The notes under the pieces: model-generated
What the model saw: the letters and a program-made list of their open reading frames with translations, nothing else
Told to the model about the DNA's origin: nothing
The model's database searches: none
Assembly (NCBI GenBank): GCA_016929595.1
Contig: JAFGIN010000086.1
Span: forward strand, 1-34,680
DNA: 34,680 nt
Direction: 5' to 3'
From: Chitinispirillaceae bacterium
Lineage (GTDB): Bacteria > Fibrobacterota > Chitinivibrionia > Chitinivibrionales > Chitinispirillaceae
Made by a program: the position numbers and the translations under genes
Shown here: positions 26,636 through 34,604 of the stretch, in pieces
How positions within the stretch are numbered: the stretch's first letter is position 1
How the letters are laid out: every line of letters starts with the position of its first letter

Positions 26636-27150
26636 GCACCTACCTAAAAATACTGATTCCTCACAATGCCGGAGTAAAGACCAGCTCTTACCAGAGAAGG
26701 GGAGTTTACAATAACCGACAAATTCCGCTAAAAACAGATTGTTTTCCCCCCGGCTACATCACATATTTAAATTCCATGAACTACAGGATCTCATTACATC
26801 ATGAATGTTTTCGAATTCCGTGACAGTCTAATCAGGGGTTATGAGCAGTTTTCTACAAGTTTTGTAATTTACAGTGCAGTAGATACCAATGTTTCGCACC
26901 TTTTTTCATTATTTGTTTGATTTTTCAACCACAATTCTCCAAAAACAGTAATAAAACTCTTCCAAAAAATCCAAAAACCTTTTATTTTGAAATTCTATAC
27001 TGATTTTCCCTTTTACACTCATCCAGACCACTCAAATCTGAGCGGATGCGGATTGGAAACGGGAAATACACAACAGTCTCAATTTCAATCACTCAGGGAT
27101 ACTATGCATTTCAGTTTTCACTACGTTCTTCATCTCACCGGGGGCTCCCG

Positions 27151-28539
27151 ATGAGCAGTACTATCGAAAAAAACGAACTTTCACAAAAGATAAAAGCGCT
27201 CGACAGTCTCACCGCCGATGAAAAATCCGCACTTATCGGCCTGCTCAACACCCGCAAGAAATATGGGCTTGTCTGGGAAGAGAAACAGGAGGATGTTGAG
27301 GAGTTGCTCAGAGAGAAACTGCCAGTATTTACTGAAGTAAAAGAGCGAAGAATTGATGCGAAGCCAGAGGAAAAAGACTCCGGTAAACTCGATCTTTTTG
27401 GTGATGATGAAAAGGACACCGCTCCCCCACCCGATCATATCAGTGATCTTATCCTTGCAAAAGAACACCTTAACACTCGCCCGGAGCGTATGCGTCTGCG
27501 CAGCACCGTTCTCAGAAGTGCTATCCGTGAAGCTGCAAAGCACGAAGGTCTCCTTGATTTCATTGATGAACCATCACAGGATGAACGGTTTGAAAAGAAT
27601 AAATTCACCTGGAGCATTCAGTTAACACTTCAGCCTCAAAAAATTGAGGTAGAAATTCCAAAGGATGTTTTGATTGATCAGGATATGGTTGTCGCCGGAA
27701 GGCAACTCATAGTACAGGAAAAAAACCGCATCCGTTATGCAAAAACGACACTGGAACTGACTACAATTGTTAATAAATTCACTCATACACTCTGTGGACC
27801 TTACGAAAAAGTTGATAGTGCTCCAATAATTAAACAGAATCTCATTTTGTTTCTTGAAGAGTACTTTGGTATTCCCGAAACTCCGGATGCCTTAAAAGTA
27901 ATCGGTTTTGAAGGCAACAAGCGGTTCTGGCAGGATTTCGTGCTTAACAAAGTGTTACACGAATATGAAAAAATTGTCAGAAAGAAGCGTGAAATCAGAC
28001 AGCCGGAAATAGAAACAGCCGAATGGAACTGGCCTCTGGAACGGGCATACAATGAAGAATTTTACAAAATTGAACCTGCGGAAGTGCACAGTCTCATTCC
28101 ATTCTGTAATGCCCGTGACGCAAGTACCCCGGAACGAAAGTTCATTGCATTTCTTGAAGAACACCGGCAATATATCAACCACTGGTATAAAAACGGCGAT
28201 TCCGGAATGGAACATTTTTCAATAGCCTATAAAAACGGCCAAGGCAAAGACAGGCTCTTTTATGTTGATTTTGTTATCCGTTTTGCAGATGATACCATCG
28301 GATTGTTTGATACAAAAACGCTCAATTCAGATCCTGAAATGGTGGCCAAGCATAATGCATTATTAGAGTATATAAGTGAGCAGCGTGAACGGTTTGGTGG
28401 CAAAATTACCGGTGGAGTAATAATCGAGCAGGGTGAAAACTGGGTCTACTCTGTGGCGCACTTAGATCCGAAACAACCATTTGACACCTATGGCTGGAAA
28501 GCATTAGTACCACAACAGTATGGGAAGATGGTAGCTTAA
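27151..28539 (+). CDS. in-frame chimera: type III Mod N-terminus joined to type III Res C-terminus
   Basis: The ATG at 27151 is chosen because the protein from there (462 aa) opens like type III DNA methyltransferase (Mod) subunits: IKALDSLTADEKSALIGLLN, KKYGLVWEEK, EVKERRI (residues 14-68). Mod proteins then continue with the methylase domain, but here an acidic linker and sequence typical of the C-terminal third of the restriction subunit (Res) follow. This includes the PD-(D/E)xK-type nuclease core FYVDF (Asp373) ... GLFDTK (Asp387, Lys389). The methylase motifs (FxGxG, DPPY) and all helicase motifs are absent. Mod and Res genes are normally adjacent, so one in-frame deletion of several kilobases explains it. 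The frame is undamaged. Whether a protein is made is unknown. Confidence 0.8.
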   Translation: MSSTIEKNELSQKIKALDSLTADEKSALIGLLNTRKKYGLVWEEKQEDVEELLREKLPVFTEVKERRIDAKPEEKDSGKLDLFGDDEKDTAPPPDHISDLILAKEHLNTRPERMRLRSTVLRSAIREAAKHEGLLDFIDEPSQDERFEKNKFTWSIQLTLQPQKIEVEIPKDVLIDQDMVVAGRQLIVQEKNRIRYAKTTLELTTIVNKFTHTLCGPYEKVDSAPIIKQNLILFLEEYFGIPETPDALKVIGFEGNKRFWQDFVLNKVLHEYEKIVRKKREIRQPEIETAEWNWPLERAYNEEFYKIEPAEVHSLIPFCNARDASTPERKFIAFLEEHRQYINHWYKNGDSGMEHFSIAYKNGQGKDRLFYVDFVIRFADDTIGLFDTKTLNSDPEMVAKHNALLEYISEQRERFGGKITGGVIIEQGENWVYSVAHLDPKQPFDTYGWKALVPQQYGKMVA

Positions 28540-28588: not shown

Positions 28589-28659
28589 ATGTGTAAAAAA
28601 AAACCGTTTTTTTTTACACATTAGCTAGGAAATGTAAAAAAAAATCATTATTTTTTACA
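28589..28659. promoter_or_regulatory. two A/T-rich palindromes before the fic gene (candidate operators)
   Basis: The first palindrome has 15-base perfect arms (28589-28603 and 28607-28621) around CCG; each arm contains GTGTA followed by nine A, or the complement. The second has 9-base arms TGTAAAAAA and TTTTTTACA (28633-28641 and 28651-28659). The shared half-site is TGTAAAA/TTTTACA. The second ends 16 bases before the fic ATG. The first may also act as a terminator for the preceding gene. Confidence 0.65.
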
Positions 28660-28675
28660 CATCATTGGATAAACT

Positions 28676-29755
28676 ATGAGTAATATGCTCGAACCATTGC
28701 CACCAAAAGCAGACCTTGAAACTAAAGCGATTCTGAAAAAATGTGCTATTGCACACCGTTTTCTGGCAGAATTAAAAGGTATTAGTGAAACGATACCAAA
28801 CCAGGAAATACTTATTAATACCCTGGCGCTGCAGGAAGCTAAAGACAGTTCAGCGATTGAAAATATCATTACCACCCACGATGAGATTTTTCAACAGGAG
28901 TTGTTCCCTGAAAGTACCCTCAATTCTGCTGCAAAAGAAGTTCGTGATTATGCACAAGCACTTAAAACAGGATTTGGTTTAATCAAAACCAGCGGAATTC
29001 TTGCAACAGCACAAATACTTGCGATACAGGAAATTCTGGAGAAAAACAAAGCAGGTTTCAGAAAATTGCCGGGAACAGAACTTAAAAACCAGCAAACTGG
29101 AGAAACAATTTACACTCCTCCACAGAATAATGATGATATCGTAAGACTTATGGCGAACCTGGAAACGTTCATAAATGTTGACGATGTATATGATGCAGAT
29201 CCACTTGTAAAAATGGCCTTGATTCATTATCAATTTGAAAGCATTCATCCGTTTTATGATGGTAACGGCAGAACCGGAAGAATCATCAATGTTCTATACC
29301 TGACACTGAAACACCTGCTCAATATTCCAGTATTATACCTGAGCCGCCACATTGTGAATACAAAAACTGATTACTACCGGCTGCTCCAGAAGGTTCGTAC
29401 CGATAACGCATGGGAGGAGTGGACACTGTATATGCTGGAATGCATTGAGAGTACTGCAAAAAATACGATCGATATAGTCGGAAGAATTCGTAAAGCCCTT
29501 CTGGATTATAAGCATCAGATTCGGAATAATCATCCCACATTTTACAGTCAGGATCTCATCAACAATCTTTTTTGTCACCCATACACTAAAATTGAATACA
29601 TTGAGCGAGATTTGAATATCAGTAGACCCACAGCATCTAAATATCTTGAAACACTTGTAACTGATGGGCTCTTACAAAAAGAGAAGTACAAAACGTCAAA
29701 TTTTTATATTAACACAGCACTGTTGCAAATACTTTCAAATTCGACAACATCATAA
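28676..29755 (+). CDS. Fic family AMP-transferase with N-terminal inhibitory helix and winged-helix C-terminus
   Basis: The 359-aa protein is a complete Fic enzyme. The catalytic loop HPFYDGNGRTGR is at 191-202, with His191 as base and all signature residues present, so transfer of AMP from ATP to a hydroxyl side chain on a target protein is expected. The N-terminal autoinhibitory motif (S/T)xxxE(G/N) is present as SSAIEN (Ser58, Glu62, Asn63), making it a class II, self-restrained Fic with no separate antitoxin required. The last 65 or so residues (YIERDLNISRPTASKYLETLVTDGLL) form a winged helix-turn-helix. The combination matches widespread Fic_N-Fic-wHTH proteins. The DNA-binding domain together with the palindromes just upstream suggests autoregulation. 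Its target is unknown. Confidence 0.93.
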   Translation: MSNMLEPLPPKADLETKAILKKCAIAHRFLAELKGISETIPNQEILINTLALQEAKDSSAIENIITTHDEIFQQELFPESTLNSAAKEVRDYAQALKTGFGLIKTSGILATAQILAIQEILEKNKAGFRKLPGTELKNQQTGETIYTPPQNNDDIVRLMANLETFINVDDVYDADPLVKMALIHYQFESIHPFYDGNGRTGRIINVLYLTLKHLLNIPVLYLSRHIVNTKTDYYRLLQKVRTDNAWEEWTLYMLECIESTAKNTIDIVGRIRKALLDYKHQIRNNHPTFYSQDLINNLFCHPYTKIEYIERDLNISRPTASKYLETLVTDGLLQKEKYKTSNFYINTALLQILSNSTTS

Positions 29756-29822: not shown

Positions 29823-30711
29823 TTGATTTTTTTAGAGCTAACAGAAGTAGTATCATTACCGAAATTGGCGATAAAACATTGGATAAACAATATTGATGAG
29901 ACAAGTGCATTGGAGAACCTGCTACGTACAACGCGCACTAACCCATTTACTGCTATTGATATATTCAGAAATGAGCTGATTGTAGCAGTTCCGCATGTTG
30001 CAAAGATTAATCAGCAAATTGATGATATCAACAGTCAGATTGCGGGTAAGGATTTTTCATCTCTCAAACGATATGAAGAACTCGAACAGCAACTTAACAA
30101 AACAAAAGTCGAGATTGAAAATCTCGAATCGGTAATTCGTGAAAAGGAACGCAAAATCCAGCGGTTTGATATTCAGATCCAGGAGGAACCAGACCCGAAA
30201 TATGAAGCACTCTGCCGACTTGTAAAATATTTTGAAGAGGCAGCAGACGCGCTTCTCAAAGCTAAAAAACAGCGACTTGAGGAACTCATGCGCAATGACC
30301 TCAACATTAACCTTGCCGCATACAGAGGAATGTGTCCAACTCAGGCATTTTACCATTATCGACGAAGCACATTACATGCTTGATTTCGACAACAGACCAC
30401 TTCGTAATCTTATTGCAGTAGGCCGTAATAAAGGTTTGTCAATTATTCTTGCGACTCAGAATATGGATCACTTCAAATCAAAACATTTTGATTATTACGC
30501 AAACGCACAATACCCGCTCATTATGAAACAGCAAACAATGGCAGATAGTGTTATCAAAGACCTGTTTGGCGTAAGTGGTCACGATTTCCACGAAATTAAA
30601 GATGCGATATCATCACTTAAAAAAGGTGAACTTATCATAAAAGACAGTTCTGCAGCGGTACTTGGTGTAGGTAGAAAATTCAAGAAAGTTCTGGTACGAC
30701 ATCTTATTTGA
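29823..30711 (+). pseudogene. broken P-loop ATPase (HerA/FtsK-like C-terminus) with coiled-coil front, frame shifted
   Basis: The first frame (from a TTG at 29823, about 180 codons) has a helical, coiled-coil-rich stretch (residues of about 60-110, EELEQQLNKTKVEIENLESVIREKE without any nucleotide-binding motif). At about 30340 similarity passes to another frame that gives FTIIDEAHYMLDF, a Walker B strand, then IILATQN, a sensor motif, ending at 30711. No Walker A motif is present in either part. The second part looks like the C-terminal end of an AAA/HerA-like ATPase of the type found in defence and conjugation clusters. The first part may be from the same gene or a neighbour. The family is not firmly recognised. 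Confidence 0.6.
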
Positions 30712-31050: not shown

Positions 31051-31463
31051 ATGAGTATGGATGAAAATATTGAGCCTTCAAAAGGGCAGTTTTTGATATA
31101 CGAAGCAGAAGACGACACACTTAAATTAGACGTTCGGCTTGAAAATGAAACTGTCTGGTTAACCCAGAAACTGATGGCTCAGCTATTTCAAAAAGATGTG
31201 AAAACTATTAACCACCACATTCTGGCTATTTTTGATGAGGGAGAGTTGGATCCGGTTTCAACTATCCGAAAATTTCGGATAGTTCAAACTGAAGGAACAA
31301 GGTCAATATCCCGCATGCACGTAAAATTTCTCATGAGATAGCTATGGAACTCGCAGAAAATGAGTATAATAAATTCCGTAAACTGCAAATAGAACAAAGT
31401 TCCAAAATCTTCAGCGATTTTGATAAAGTTGTAAAGCAGATACCATTGAAGAAAAAGGAATAA
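31051..31463 (+). pseudogene. RhuM-family gene with deleted middle
   Basis: From the ATG at 31051 (AGGAAA ribosome site about 10 bases upstream) the first 88 or so codons encode the N-terminus of RhuM-type virulence/phage-associated proteins: VRLENETVWLTQKLMAQLF, KTINHHILAIFDEGELD, and TEGTRSISR. Normally a YNLDxIIxVGYRV segment follows, but here the frame ends at 31341. In the other frame at about 31322 the C-terminal tail resumes (KISHEIAMELAENEYNKFRK ... DFDKVVKQI) and stops at 31463. About 200 codons of the roughly 340-codon family length are lost and the halves are out of frame. RhuM's biochemical role is not known. Confidence 0.85.
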
Positions 31464-31559: not shown

Positions 31560-32246
31560 TCAAGATTGTTTTTTCATATGTTCAATACAAGCTGCAATTT
31601 GCTCTTTAGTAAATTCAAAAATCTTTTTTCCTAAAAGATGAACCTCTGTTGAATAAAGTTTTGGCTGCCCATTCTCAATTTCAAAATTTGTTTCAGAATT
31701 GCAAATCGCAGATTGTATCCACACAGGCATTTTTCGACTATCGAATCCACCGGAAATTTTGGAATTAGTGTAATCTTTAAAACTATCGTGTTTTGACACA
31801 TGCTCTGGATCAGGTTTTTCCGGATGAAAGTGATAATAGAGCCAGATTTCAAATGACGGGTTACTTTGTGCAACAAACCAGCATTCGAAATAGTTATTCC
31901 GTTCTCTGACATAATCCCTCAGGATATTGATTTTATTGCCAATATTCCACAAGTCGGTATCGATTACGAACCATACTTCATCATTATATTCCTTACTTAG
32001 CTGGTAGATCGGCCTTGTACTTTCATCCCCCAAAAAATGTTTAATCGCACTATTCTTTAGTTTTACAGGTTCAGTATTCCCATTGTCACTTGGAATAGGG
32101 ATTATGTCGATATTTGAAGAAAATCCTCGAAAAAAATTAAAATAATCTATTTCTCTTTTATCTCCTTCGCAAAAGATATAGATCTTCCTGGCATCTTTGA
32201 AGGGCTCACGCTTTTCATACAATTTGTTGCGACTTAAGTACTTCAT
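31560..32246 (-). CDS. rloB: RloB-family protein (TOPRIM-like), second gene of a two-gene defence pair
   Basis: The 228-aa protein has the RloB-type order of acidic motifs: CEGDKRE (Glu27 region), VIDTDLW (Asp96, Asp98) and the family hallmark SNPSFEIWLYYHF (128-140). The acidic E ... DxD pattern resembles a TOPRIM nuclease fold. RloB is found with the ATPase RloA in restriction loci and as the AbiLii component of lactococcal AbiL phage-abortive systems. Anti-phage function here is inferred from the pair. The ATG is 4 bases from the preceding ATPase stop, so the two are translationally coupled. No damage is seen. Confidence 0.85.
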   Translation of the reverse strand: MKYLSRNKLYEKREPFKDARKIYIFCEGDKREIDYFNFFRGFSSNIDIIPIPSDNGNTEPVKLKNSAIKHFLGDESTRPIYQLSKEYNDEVWFVIDTDLWNIGNKINILRDYVRERNNYFECWFVAQSNPSFEIWLYYHFHPEKPDPEHVSKHDSFKDYTNSKISGGFDSRKMPVWIQSAICNSETNFEIENGQPKLYSTEVHLLGKKIFEFTKEQIAACIEHMKKQS

Positions 32247-32249
32247 ATA

Positions 32250-33587
32250 TTACCAGCTTAAGTCTTTCAAATTTCCTAAGAACGGGATTCCACCATATCT
32301 ACCATTCAGATAGCCGTTCTCAATATCAATAGTATTGTGTATCTTGTAATCACTTAATGAATACATTTTTGTGGAACCATCACAATCTTTCTGGGTTAGC
32401 CAGATCTCGTCTGGTCTTAAAATATTTTGATCAAGTAGATTTGACTCGTGTGTTGTAAAAATGAGCTGGCCCCTGGCATTAGTATCTAATAAAATTTTGC
32501 CAAGTATTTCCTTAATTAGAAGTGGATGAATACTCCTTTCAACTTCATCAATCAAAAAAACAAGATCATTGTTGACAATCGCTTGTATAGCTGGAATATA
32601 CTCTATTAATCTTCTAGTACCATCAGATTCCTGCCCCGTATAAAACTTTATTTTTTTATTATCAGAATTTAAATGCGTTGTAACCAATCTTTTGGCAACG
32701 AGTTCATTATTCTCATTAACAACTGTTATTTCTTCACCGGTTTCACTATTGGTAAATACGGAAAAATGATCTGGTTCATTTTTCAAATCACCAATTAATT
32801 CATTTACATCAATTTTGTCATTTGCATCAAAAAAATCCTCAAATTTCTTTTTTTCTACTTCAATTTTTGTAATCCCGGTATTTAAACTTGAAATGAACTT
32901 GTTCCCAAAGTTTTCGGTTTCAATGTTTTTATCCAAAATATCCGCAATACCCCCTGGCTTTGTTTCTGGCCTAATGATAAATAAAGTAACGGAAAACCAA
33001 TTAAAAACTGTTTTAATAGATCTAAAATCACCAGGAAATTTTTTATTTAAAAAAGTTAACAATAATTCATTTTTTGGAAGCAATTTTTCAGTGAGGACTT
33101 CAGCAAATAATTTTTTCTTTTCATCGCTGTAATATTCACTATAGAAACTGATTTTTTGTAATCCATTTTCTAAGGTCCTTTCATAAACCAGTGCATCTTC
33201 ATTCCTTGAACTTTCGGACAAATATTCATGTAAGATTTCGCCTTGATCAAATGTTATAGTGAAGTAATACACTTTACCATCTGCAACAAATTCAATTGCG
33301 AGGGAAACTGGGAGTTTTTCATTTTCACTTGTAAGTTTGAATTTGAGATCGTTAACTTCTTTTTTGATTTTTCCGTCCTCAACCATTCTCTGAAGCAAAG
33401 ATATTGACTTTACCAAGTTAGATTTTCCAGAGCCATTAGCTCCATAAATCGCACTATATCTCAAAAATTCAAAATCCCCTACGGAAACTCTATGATGTTG
33501 TAGCCTCTGGGTTTTATTGGGGAACAGGTTAAACTCAGTCTCGTCTTTAAATGAATAAATATTTTTTGCAACAAATCTAATAATCAT
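32250..33587 (-). CDS. RloA/AbiLi-like AAA (AAA15/ABC-type) ATPase
   Basis: The start is taken at the ATG at 33587, not 33629, because the protein then begins MIIRFVAKNIYSFKDETEF, the usual opening of this family (strand, then F-rich loop), and AGGATGG lies about ten bases upstream. About 445 aa. Walker A is YGANGSGKS (48-56), the ABC-like signature is in SDGTRRLIEYIP, and Walker B is LVFLIDEVERSIHP (from 342), followed by FTTHESNLLD. The architecture is that of the SMC-like AAA15 ATPases that partner TOPRIM or RloB effectors in AbiL- and PARIS-like systems. In such systems the ATPase is thought to sense phage activity and release the effector. Apparently intact. Confidence 0.85.
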   Translation of the reverse strand: MIIRFVAKNIYSFKDETEFNLFPNKTQRLQHHRVSVGDFEFLRYSAIYGANGSGKSNLVKSISLLQRMVEDGKIKKEVNDLKFKLTSENEKLPVSLAIEFVADGKVYYFTITFDQGEILHEYLSESSRNEDALVYERTLENGLQKISFYSEYYSDEKKKLFAEVLTEKLLPKNELLLTFLNKKFPGDFRSIKTVFNWFSVTLFIIRPETKPGGIADILDKNIETENFGNKFISSLNTGITKIEVEKKKFEDFFDANDKIDVNELIGDLKNEPDHFSVFTNSETGEEITVVNENNELVAKRLVTTHLNSDNKKIKFYTGQESDGTRRLIEYIPAIQAIVNNDLVFLIDEVERSIHPLLIKEILGKILLDTNARGQLIFTTHESNLLDQNILRPDEIWLTQKDCDGSTKMYSLSDYKIHNTIDIENGYLNGRYGGIPFLGNLKDLSW

Positions 33588-33911
33588 AACAATCCATCCT
33601 GTGAATAATTCACACAAAACTCTACACAATATACAATACTACATAACTCCAAGCAAAAAAACAACCACCAAACGTGAAAACCACACGTTTGGTGCAACTT
33701 TAATACCAAATTTGACTGGAATAATTCCGAATTAATTGTACTCTGGTTTTTACTATCTCCACGCATGCTTATAATCGAACAAAAACAGTCCCGACTTTCC
33801 CCTATCTTAAATCTGTTACCATGTAATATTTTAAAAGTGTTGTTACATAACAGCTTAGTAAATAAGGATACCATTAATTTTGTAGATGTTAAAAAAAGAG
33901 GACTTCAAAAA
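33588..33911. other. non-coding stretch between the RloA-like gene and the KilA-N gene
   Basis: About 324 bp between divergent genes, AT-rich, probably holding both promoters. It contains the inverted repeat at 33666-33694. No small RNA or gene could be recognised. Open frames extending into it from both sides are not protein-like. Confidence 0.5.
33666..33694. promoter_or_regulatory. 11-bp inverted repeat upstream of the RloA/RloB pair
   Basis: CACCAAACGTG (33666-33676) and CACGTTTGGTG (33684-33694) are perfect inverted repeats with a 7-base spacer, 79 bp before the ATPase start codon on the minus strand. Position and symmetry fit a dimeric repressor's operator. A transcript hairpin is the alternative. 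No regulator gene is adjacent apart from the broken KilA-N gene. Confidence 0.45.
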
Positions 33912-34604
33912 ATGGTAACCATCAACGTATTAGGAAAAACTATCACAGTTCAATCTTTAGAAACACAGGATTTTTCGTTAACCGACATGGCAAAACACAA
34001 AAACCCGAATGAAACAAGTCTGGTGATCTCACATTGGCTGAGAACTCGTTATACTGTGGAGTTTCTGGGCACCTGGGAACGGCTCAACAATCCTGATTTT
34101 AATACTACGGAATTCAGTAGTATTAAAAATGAAAGTGGAAGTAACGGTTTCGTACTCTCACAACAAAATATTGGGCTGAGAAAACAAATGCAATCGGTAT
34201 CTATTCTAAAACTGGTCGCTATAACAGTGGCACCTTCGCTCACAAAGACATCGCATTTGAATTCGCATCCTGGATTTCAGTTGAATTCAAACTTTATCTC
34301 ATAAAAGAATTCCAGCGACTTAAAGACGAGGAACTCAAACAATTGGGTTGGGATATCCGTCGCAATCTCGCTAAAATTAATTATCGTATTCATACCGACG
34401 CCATAAAACAACACCTCGTTCCTCCGGAACTTACAAAAATTGAAATGAATATTGTGTATGCGACCGAAGCGGATGTTCTTAATATGGCTCTCTTTGGCAA
34501 AACAGCAAAACAATGGCGTGATGAAAACCCGGAACAAAGATGGTAATATCCGTGATTACGCAGACATTTTACAACTGGTATGTCTTTCCAACCTCAGAAC
34601 TCAC
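33912..34604 (+). pseudogene. KilA-N domain protein with two frameshifts
   Basis: The ATG at 33912 has GAGGA about ten bases upstream. The first frame encodes the KilA-N DNA-binding start (residues 1-80, FSLTDMAKHKNPNETSLVIS, WLRTRYTVEFLGTWE). After LSQQ at about 34158 the frame must drop to continue KYWAEKTNAIGIYSKTGRY and FASWISVEFKLYLIKEFQRL. At about 34536-34542 it must shift again to read KDGNIRDYADILQLVCLSNL, after which it ends. Both shifts equal the loss of one A in a short A-run. KilA-N proteins are common in phages and mobile islands. Without the shifts the protein would be nearly full length. Similarity is fading by about 34600. Confidence 0.8.

What the first reader, a model, noticed from the sequence alone, without database searches (positions are those of the whole stretch)
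28589..28675. Double A/T palindrome in front of a Fic-winged-helix gene
Two inverted repeats share the half-site TGTAAAA/TTTTACA, and the second overlaps the ribosome-binding zone of fic. The Fic protein carries its own C-terminal winged helix. A self-repressing Fic switch is a direct prediction, in which the AMPylator state could feed back on its own synthesis.
Basis: partly seen in the sequence, partly recalled or inferred. Interest (0 to 1): 0.55.

Follow-up and report, generated by a model that had tools for sequence, protein, structure and literature searches.

The report
Self-repressing Fic toxin's own operator
In front of a bacterial anti-phage-type toxin gene lie paired mirror-image DNA sites that the toxin itself probably binds to switch off its own gene, and the same layout with different letters recurs in front of many related genes in other bacteria.

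Summary
Confirmed and extended. Two 27-bp palindromes (TGTAAA-N15-TTTACA) lie 41 bp apart just upstream of a SoFic-like fic gene; no shuffle of the region matches the 16-bp perfect arms (0 of 2000).

The layout recurs. In 220 non-redundant family loci, the window's included, inverted 6-mers peak 21 bp apart (89 of 220; shuffles 10.3) and direct repeats at 30, 40-42 and 70 bp, near whole helical turns. Same-word TGTxyA pairs lie upstream of 77 of 164 and, in a later set, 18 of 56 genes; in-gene 0 of 164 and 0 of 56; upstream of other ORFs with free space 4 of 98.

The half-site letters follow the Fic protein's winged helix: residue 318, in the recognition helix, ranks first of 321 columns, and a code fixed on the first set predicted 15 of 18 new operators. 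Tree-based tests were not significant.

Best reading: autorepression by the toxin's own winged helix. Fic-HTH autoregulation was suggested in 2009 and shown for CccR in 2022; I found no paper on the phased SoFic array or the code. Feedback from AMPylation state is untested.

The parts
28589..28621 (.). Palindrome P1 (operator 1): 16-nt arms ATGTGTAAAAAAAAAC / GTTTTTTTTTACACAT with one base between; core TGTAAA-N15-TTTACA at 28592-28618
28633..28662 (.). Palindrome P2 (operator 2), 30-nt copy of P1 41 bp downstream; core TGTAAA-N15-TTTACA at 28633-28659
28592..28597 (+). half-site 1, TGTAAA
28613..28618 (-). half-site 2, TGTAAA on the minus strand, 21 bp from half-site 1
28633..28638 (+). half-site 3, TGTAAA
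28654..28659 (-). half-site 4, TGTAAA on the minus strand, 21 bp from half-site 3
28667..28669 (+). weak Shine-Dalgarno-like GGA, 6 nt before the start codon
   Evidence: sequence
28676..29755 (+). fic gene, 359 aa, SoFic-like (class II) protein adenylyltransferase with C-terminal winged helix
28847..28861 (+). residues 58-62 SSAIE of the inhibitory helix motif SxxxE; S58 and E62 invariant in the 47-row alignment
   Evidence: motif recalled, the matching glutamates E70/E73 named
29246..29272 (+). Fic motif HPFYDGNGR, residues 191-199
29507..29722 (+). SoFic-like C-terminal winged-helix domain, residues 278-349
29624..29662 (+). recognition helix, residues 317-329 (R317-P318-T319-A320...)
29627..29629 (+). 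codon of Pro318, the column that varies most closely with the operator word

Best explanation
The two palindromes are the operator of the fic gene, read by the winged helix of the Fic protein itself. A Fic dimer places its two winged helices on two inverted TGTAAA half-sites two helical turns (21 bp) apart. A second dimer binds the copy four turns (41 bp) on, on the same face of the DNA, probably cooperatively. Bound protein blocks the promoter and start region, so the toxic AMPylator keeps its own level low. Shown here: the array, its recurring geometry, the covariation with residue 318, and half-sites inside promoter-like sequences of some relatives. Inferred: binding by this protein, cooperativity, repression rather than activation, and any release on phage infection.
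For: Geometry: inverted 6-mer pairs are most frequent at 21 bp, 89 of 220 loci (shuffle mean 10.3), with a shoulder from 17 to 29 bp as long arms give; direct repeats at 30 bp (42), 40 (69), 41 (58), 42 (25) and 70 (26) of 220, shuffle means at 30 and 40-42 bp 5.3-7.0, and 4 of 220 observed at 35 bp. Exact same-word TGTxyA pairs: 77 of 164 upstream, 0 of 164 in-gene (its spacings were chosen after on the same loci); 18 of 56 against 0 of 56 in later loci; upstream of other ORFs of 150 aa or more in the same loci 4 of 212, or 4 of the 98 with at least 60 nt of free space, against 75 of 163 for fic. Specificity: column 318 ranks first of 316 and of 321 columns after removing overall Fic-body similarity (r 0.417 and 0.44, next 0.27), and first at all four clustering thresholds on cluster representatives. 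A rule fixed on the first set got 15 of 18 new operators right; the majority class would give 8. The model puts residues 317-329 in the recognition helix and 333-338 and 341-346 in the wing; 9 of the 30 best-covarying columns lie in 314-329 or 333-346, which hold 29 of 321 columns (p 0.0004). Promoter-like TTGACN-N16..18-TAnnnT occurs upstream in 18 of 220 and in-gene in 0 of 220; 4 of the 18 have a called TGTxyA word, and in 2 of these (L271, L283) the word lies between -35 and -10; by eye the same holds for more, such as L265, L266, L268 and L279. The own-genome paralogue has a different word at the same 41-bp spacing. Precedent: CccR, a Fic protein with C-terminal HTH, represses its own promoter through palindromes (PMC9755527, part 1 of 2 of one section read).
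Against: No binding or expression data for this protein. 42 of 164 loci have neither a TGTxyA pair nor another palindrome at p<=0.05, and 13 more sit tight behind an upstream ORF without one. Tree-based tests are not significant: 14 class changes, 3 or fewer supported independent pairs per test, on average none opposed; 318 ranks only 23 of 295 in a branch co-change test. The next best covarying columns, N3 and I103, lie outside the winged helix, and on representatives body columns such as R241 and S189 also score high, so part of the signal is shared ancestry. At moderate divergence the whole Fic body predicts the operator class about as well as the recognition residues do. TGTAAA also occurs with L or I at 318 (4 of 11), and one P318 protein (L150) has TGTATA tied with TGTAAA. 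No good sigma-70 promoter is visible just upstream of fic in the window.
Confidence: 0.82

Rival explanations
1. The palindromes are the operator of a different regulator, of the host or of the defence island, and Fic does not bind them.
For: The island encodes other candidate DNA-binding proteins (a KilA-N ORF, and a RhuM-like fragment, PDC-S05; the RhuM name is recalled), and no binding was measured.
Against: The same layout precedes fic in many other genomes, and its letters follow the Fic recognition helix. The own-genome paralogue has its own, different palindrome pair at the same 41-bp spacing.
Confidence: 0.07
2. The inverted repeats act as RNA: hairpins that attenuate or block translation of fic, or end transcription from upstream.
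For: The transcript folds better than shuffles (z -3.86, 1 of 200 at least as good), and P2 lies beside the ribosome-binding zone.
Against: Direct-repeat spacings fall near multiples of the DNA helical turn and everted pairs also occur. The words follow a protein helix. The palindrome centre lies anywhere from 16 to about 120 nt before the start codon in different loci. The palindromes' stems are almost wholly A-U and the terminator scan did not score them.
Confidence: 0.06
3. Fic binds the array but activates its own transcription, or the array only serves to hold the enzyme in an inactive or active DNA-bound state.
For: In the Coxiella Fic enzyme CbFic2, DNA binding stimulates (de)AMPylation (PMC10628234, passages). 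In EcSofic the C-terminal domain controls toxicity (PMC12249575, parts 1-2 of 4).
Against: Half-sites sit between -35 and -10 in some relatives, the usual place of repressor sites, and CccR represses.
Confidence: 0.1
4. A/T-rich noise or a copied mobile repeat with no regulatory role.
For: The region is 76% A+T.
Against: 0 of 2000 shuffles; the pattern has only one further place in the genome, between convergent ORFs; recurring layout with changing letters, rare upstream of other ORFs.
Confidence: 0.01

Closest known systems
CccR of Yersinia pseudotuberculosis (Fic + C-terminal HTH; PMC9755527)
   Same: A Fic toxin whose own C-terminal HTH represses its promoter through palindromes; dimer needed; S59 and E63 block ATP binding.
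   Different: Its footprint is two 10-bp arms with a 26-bp spacer. Here half-sites are 21 bp apart and operators repeat at 30 or 40-42 bp. CccR is also a secreted T6SS effector. Its sequence was not compared here.
SoFic (SO_4266) and EcSofic, the Sofic anti-phage system
   Same: Full-length fold: TM 0.92 to 3zcn, about 40% identity. Same domains (Fic_N, Fic, SoFic-like_C). PADLOC SoFic 386 bits.
   Different: Below NCBIfam's equivalog cut-off (381 against 550 bits). The EcSofic paper assigns the C-terminal domain to toxicity control and describes a 47-aa antitoxin AS1; the words DNA-binding, HTH and winged do not occur in its main text. A downstream AS1-like gene was not looked for in the window.
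CbFic2 of Coxiella burnetii (PMC10628234)
   Same: Fic with C-terminal winged HTH that binds DNA and dimerises.
   Different: In the passages seen, DNA binding changes enzyme activity; gene autoregulation did not come up.
Phd-Doc and other autorepressed toxin-antitoxin operons
   Same: A toxin kept low by a repressor on palindromic sites at its own promoter.
   Different: There the antitoxin carries the DNA-binding domain; here toxin and repressor are one protein (from general knowledge).

Membership tests
SoFic family (Sofic defence protein) | Fic_N, Fic and SoFic-like_C domains in order | tested here: met
   All three above Pfam gathering scores; Foldseek TM 0.92 to 3zcn
SoFic family (Sofic defence protein) | NCBIfam equivalog NF046030 cut-off | tested here: not met
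   381.3 bits against 550; so described as SoFic-like, not as an NCBIfam equivalog
SoFic family (Sofic defence protein) | Protection against phage | not testable with these tools
   Needs a plaque assay; only the defence-island setting was seen
Class II Fic AMP transferases | Catalytic motif HPFx[D/E]GN[G/K]R | tested here: met
   HPFYDGNGR, residues 191-199; motif as in the abstract of PMC2686095
Class II Fic AMP transferases | N-terminal inhibitory helix with SxxxE | tested here: met
   S58-E62, both invariant in 47 rows; motif recalled
Class II Fic AMP transferases | AMP transfer activity | not testable with these tools
   No assay
Fic-HTH autorepressors (CccR type) | Palindromic sites just upstream of the gene, at its promoter | tested here: inconclusive
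   Palindromes present; the promoter itself was not located in the window
Fic-HTH autorepressors (CccR type) | Sites read by the protein's own HTH | tested here: inconclusive
   Covariation and out-of-sample prediction support it; tree tests underpowered; no binding test
Fic-HTH autorepressors (CccR type) | Operator geometry of two arms with 26-bp spacer | tested here: not met
   Here TGTAAA-N15-TTTACA twice, 41 bp apart

The most novel reading that the evidence does not exclude
SoFic proteins are one-gene toxin-antitoxin-like switches. The enzyme is its own repressor, bound as a stack of dimers on a helically phased half-site array. A short recognition-helix code, with residue 318 as the main switch, has diversified into many operator words, so that several copies can live in one cell without repressing each other. 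The C-terminal domain that binds the array also controls toxicity, so a change of nucleotide or AMPylation state on infection could release the DNA and raise synthesis and activity together.
Probability: 0.3. Interest if true: 0.8.

Novelty: new variant of a known kind. Interest (0 to 1): 0.62.

Why it matters
The 2025 Sofic paper calls the regulation and activation of this anti-phage toxin elusive (PMC12249575, parts 1-2 of 4). A family-wide operator with a readable protein-DNA code would give a direct, testable layer of that control. It gives a likely role to the winged helix seen in the SoFic structure released in 2008, and it predicts operators from protein sequence. If coexisting copies must use different words, it also gives a reason for the diversification.

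Tried and rejected
Noise and mobile-repeat readings were rejected. A regulon beyond fic was looked for: TGTAAA-N14..16-TTTACA has 9 places in the genome against 6 for the reversed control pattern, so no regulon is visible. A sigma-70 promoter was sought and not convincingly found upstream of fic in the window. One covariation statistic, mutual information on representatives, was spoiled by undefined values in the sort; its rank for 318 (241) is void and was redone. The other lines stand. Tree-based tests did not reach significance and are reported as such. Recognition residues clearly beat the Fic body as predictor only when relatives at 50% body identity or more are left out (0.30 against 0.09, random 0.05); with cut-offs of 55-70% the two are nearly equal, and without exclusion the body is slightly better, 0.89 against 0.86. 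That coexisting copies carry different operators was only looked at by eye: in five genomes with two readable operators (G000, G201, G765, G287, G749) they differ, but such copies are usually distant from each other. The upstream 497-aa ORF was searched in plasmids without a match at 1e-5.

Rows dropped before counts: of 229 loci, 3 were pattern loci, 10 matched only from beyond residue 30, 3 gave proteins under 330 aa and 1 had no start, leaving 212, of which 164 were non-redundant at 85%. In one search, of 73 new loci 3 were short, 5 matched late and 2 had no start; 63 remained, 56 non-redundant. The one TGTCCA locus was left out (predictor part), 58 and 59 and kept. In one search, 102 of the 110 loci were usable. 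The sets hold the window's own locus (L004) once. The in-gene controls are one stretch per fic gene; one search adds a control upstream of other ORFs. Searches that gave homologues were samples: 156 of 200 genomes (E <= 0.001), 43 of 369, 67 of 296, 6 of 198, 24 of 398 at 1e-55, and 17 of 295 and 14 of 207 at 1e-45; one search kept the best 80 of 131 relatives; of the 264 plasmid records five were fetched, and of the 5 phage records one.

Full report
What is there. The intergenic stretch before the fic gene (28676-29755) holds two palindromes. P1 (28589-28621) has 16-nt arms with one base between. P2 (28633-28662) is a 90%-identical 30-nt copy 41 bp further on. Both share the core TGTAAA-N15-TTTACA, 27 bp long. 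None of 2000 shuffles of the 136-nt region gives perfect arms of 16. A longer form of the core, TGTAAAAA-N4..16-TTTTTACA, occurs at three places in the 6.6-Mb genome, two of them here; the third lies between convergent ORFs. P2 ends 5 nt before a weak GGA and 14 nt before the ATG.

The gene. The 359-aa protein has Fic_N, Fic and SoFic-like_C domains, scores 386 bits against PADLOC SoFic, and its model (mean pLDDT 89.9) matches Shewanella SoFic 3zcn with TM 0.92. It stays below NCBIfam's equivalog cut-off, 381 against 550 bits, so I call it SoFic-like. The catalytic motif HPFYDGNGR and the S58/E62 pair of the inhibitory helix are intact. The C-terminal part is a winged helix with recognition helix 317-329 and wing strands 333-338 and 341-346.

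Conservation of the layout. I gathered homologues from genome collections and a few from plasmids and one phage scaffold. In a first set of 102 loci a best inverted repeat at p<=0.01 lay upstream in 40, against 1 of 102 for in-gene controls. In 164 non-redundant loci a palindrome scan gave 61 against 2 at p<=0.01, and 89 against 8 at p<=0.05. Pooled over 220 loci, the window's included, inverted 6-mers are most frequent at 21 bp (89 of 220, shuffles 10.3; shoulder 17-29 bp) and direct repeats at 30 (42), 40 (69), 41 (58), 42 (25) and 70 bp (26), with 4 of 220 at 35 bp. These spacings are about two, three, four and seven turns of B-DNA. Exact same-word TGTxyA pairs at such spacings occur upstream in 77 of 164 and in-gene in 0 of 164; the spacings were taken from then on the same loci, but the 56 later loci, 18 against 0, are free of that. 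Upstream of other ORFs in the same loci the rule fires in 4 of 212 stretches, all 4 among the 98 with free space, against 75 of 163 upstream of fic.

Words and code. The half-site word differs between loci: TGTATA 30, TGTCGA 19, TGTAAA 11, TGTTAA 11, TGTTCA 5, TGTCCA 1. Others outside this form were seen by eye, such as AACGAGGGCAAA, TGATAAGAAA and CATACATTAAAA. In the 76 loci compared, residue 318 is L, I or V in 29 of 30 TGTATA proteins, Q in 11 of 11 TGTTAA, Q or E in 19 of 19 TGTCGA, and P in 7 of 11 TGTAAA. The window protein has P318 and TGTAAA. After removing overall Fic-body similarity, column 318 ranks first (r 0.417 of 316 columns; 0.44 of 321 when pooled; next 0.27), and first at four clustering thresholds on cluster representatives. 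A rule fixed on the first set was tried on 56 new loci: 18 had TGTxyA arrays and 15 of 18 were predicted correctly; the three misses carry words not seen before, TGTGCA twice and TGTCTA.

Limits of that evidence. The operator class changes about 14 times on the Fic-body tree. Independent-pair tests give three or fewer supported pairs, on average none opposed, and cannot reach significance. A branch co-change test ranks 318 only 23rd of 295. The runner-up columns N3 and I103 lie outside the winged helix, and some body columns also score high on representatives. Except among distant pairs the Fic body predicts the class about as well as the recognition residues do. 42 of the first 164 loci show neither kind of site, and 13 more are tight behind an upstream ORF.

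Mechanism. Promoter-like TTGACN-N16..18-TAnnnT occurs upstream in 18 of 220 loci and in-gene in none. Four of the 18 have a called word; in two of them it lies between the two boxes, for example TTGACGTGTCGATGCCATCGACGTATGCT in L283, and by eye several of the other 14 (L265, L266, L268, L279) look alike. In L199, L208 and L210, and in the Agrobacterium locus L228, the last half-site runs into the start codon (TCGAC-ATG). This fits blocking of transcription or early translation. In the window itself no clear promoter was found. The transcript could also fold (z -3.86), so an RNA role for this one sequence is not excluded, but helical spacing and a protein-side code are not expected of RNA.

What is known. 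Kinch and co-workers suggested in 2009 that HTH domains fused to fic may regulate fic expression, and named the C-terminal domain of the Shewanella structure a winged helix (PMC2686095, passages; author name recalled). CccR was shown in 2022 to repress its own promoter through palindromes read by its C-terminal HTH (PMC9755527, part 1 of 2 of one section), with another geometry. The 2025 EcSofic paper (PMC12249575, parts 1-2 of 4 and a term search) treats the C-terminal domain as a toxicity control; the terms DNA-binding, HTH and winged are absent from its main text. The 2013 SoFic paper (PMC3667792, term search) has none of the terms winged, DNA-binding, HTH, operator or promoter. The searches listed no paper whose title or abstract start tells of a SoFic operator array or code; listings were capped, and preprints and most subscription papers are not in that library. 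Further PDB entries of SoFic (9tb0, 9tc4, 9tch, 9tcl) may belong to work that I could not see.

Own-genome control. A second Fic protein in the same genome (28% identical, L203) has a different palindrome pair, with ATTTTAGG half-sites exactly 41 bp apart.

Verdict. The kind of system is known; the phased array and the residue-318 code make it a new variant worth testing.

Noticed in passing
window 27046-28539: 497-aa ORF whose residues 69-110 match the N-terminal part of type III methyltransferases (PADLOC MTase_III); the rest has no family match, and its end resembles, from memory only, a type III restriction subunit. Possibly the fused remnant of a mod-res pair.
   Followed up: partly
window 29823-30711: Two overlapping ORFs with weak matches to PbeC/LmuB and to the C-terminus of DndH: possibly decayed pieces of a larger ATPase of a defence system.
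   Followed up: partly
window 31560-33629, minus strand: AbiLi/AbiLii-like pair (AAA ATPase and RloB-like protein), so the fic gene sits near other defence genes.
   Followed up: partly
window 31051-31341 and 33765-34304: A PDC-S05 fragment (RhuM-like, name recalled) and a KilA-N ORF (PDC-S22), candidate defence genes.
   Followed up: no
L203 (own genome, G000:C70:5531-6610): Second, distant Fic protein with its own palindrome pair of different sequence at the same 41-bp spacing.
   Followed up: partly
L224 1-4050: On an Azotobacter plasmid a SoFic-like gene lies between a DNA methyltransferase gene and a restriction subunit S gene, with another Fic gene behind. 13 of 164 homologues sit tight behind an upstream ORF without a recognised operator.
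   Followed up: no
L199, L208, L210, L228 upstream of fic: The last TGTCGA-type half-site runs into the start codon (TCGAC then ATG), so operator and initiation codon abut.
   Followed up: no
L263, L265, L268 upstream of fic: Proteins with P318 from the search around a Bacilli genome have GAGGAAAG-like half-sites by eye, sharing AAAG with the TGTAAAG class although outside the TGTxyA form.
   Followed up: no
L134 near 2734, L095 near 4227, L124 near 395, L019 minus strand near 2767: The only four non-fic ORFs with a TGTxyA pair upstream in the control; L134 and L095 have three pairs each, perhaps further genes under such operators.
   Followed up: no
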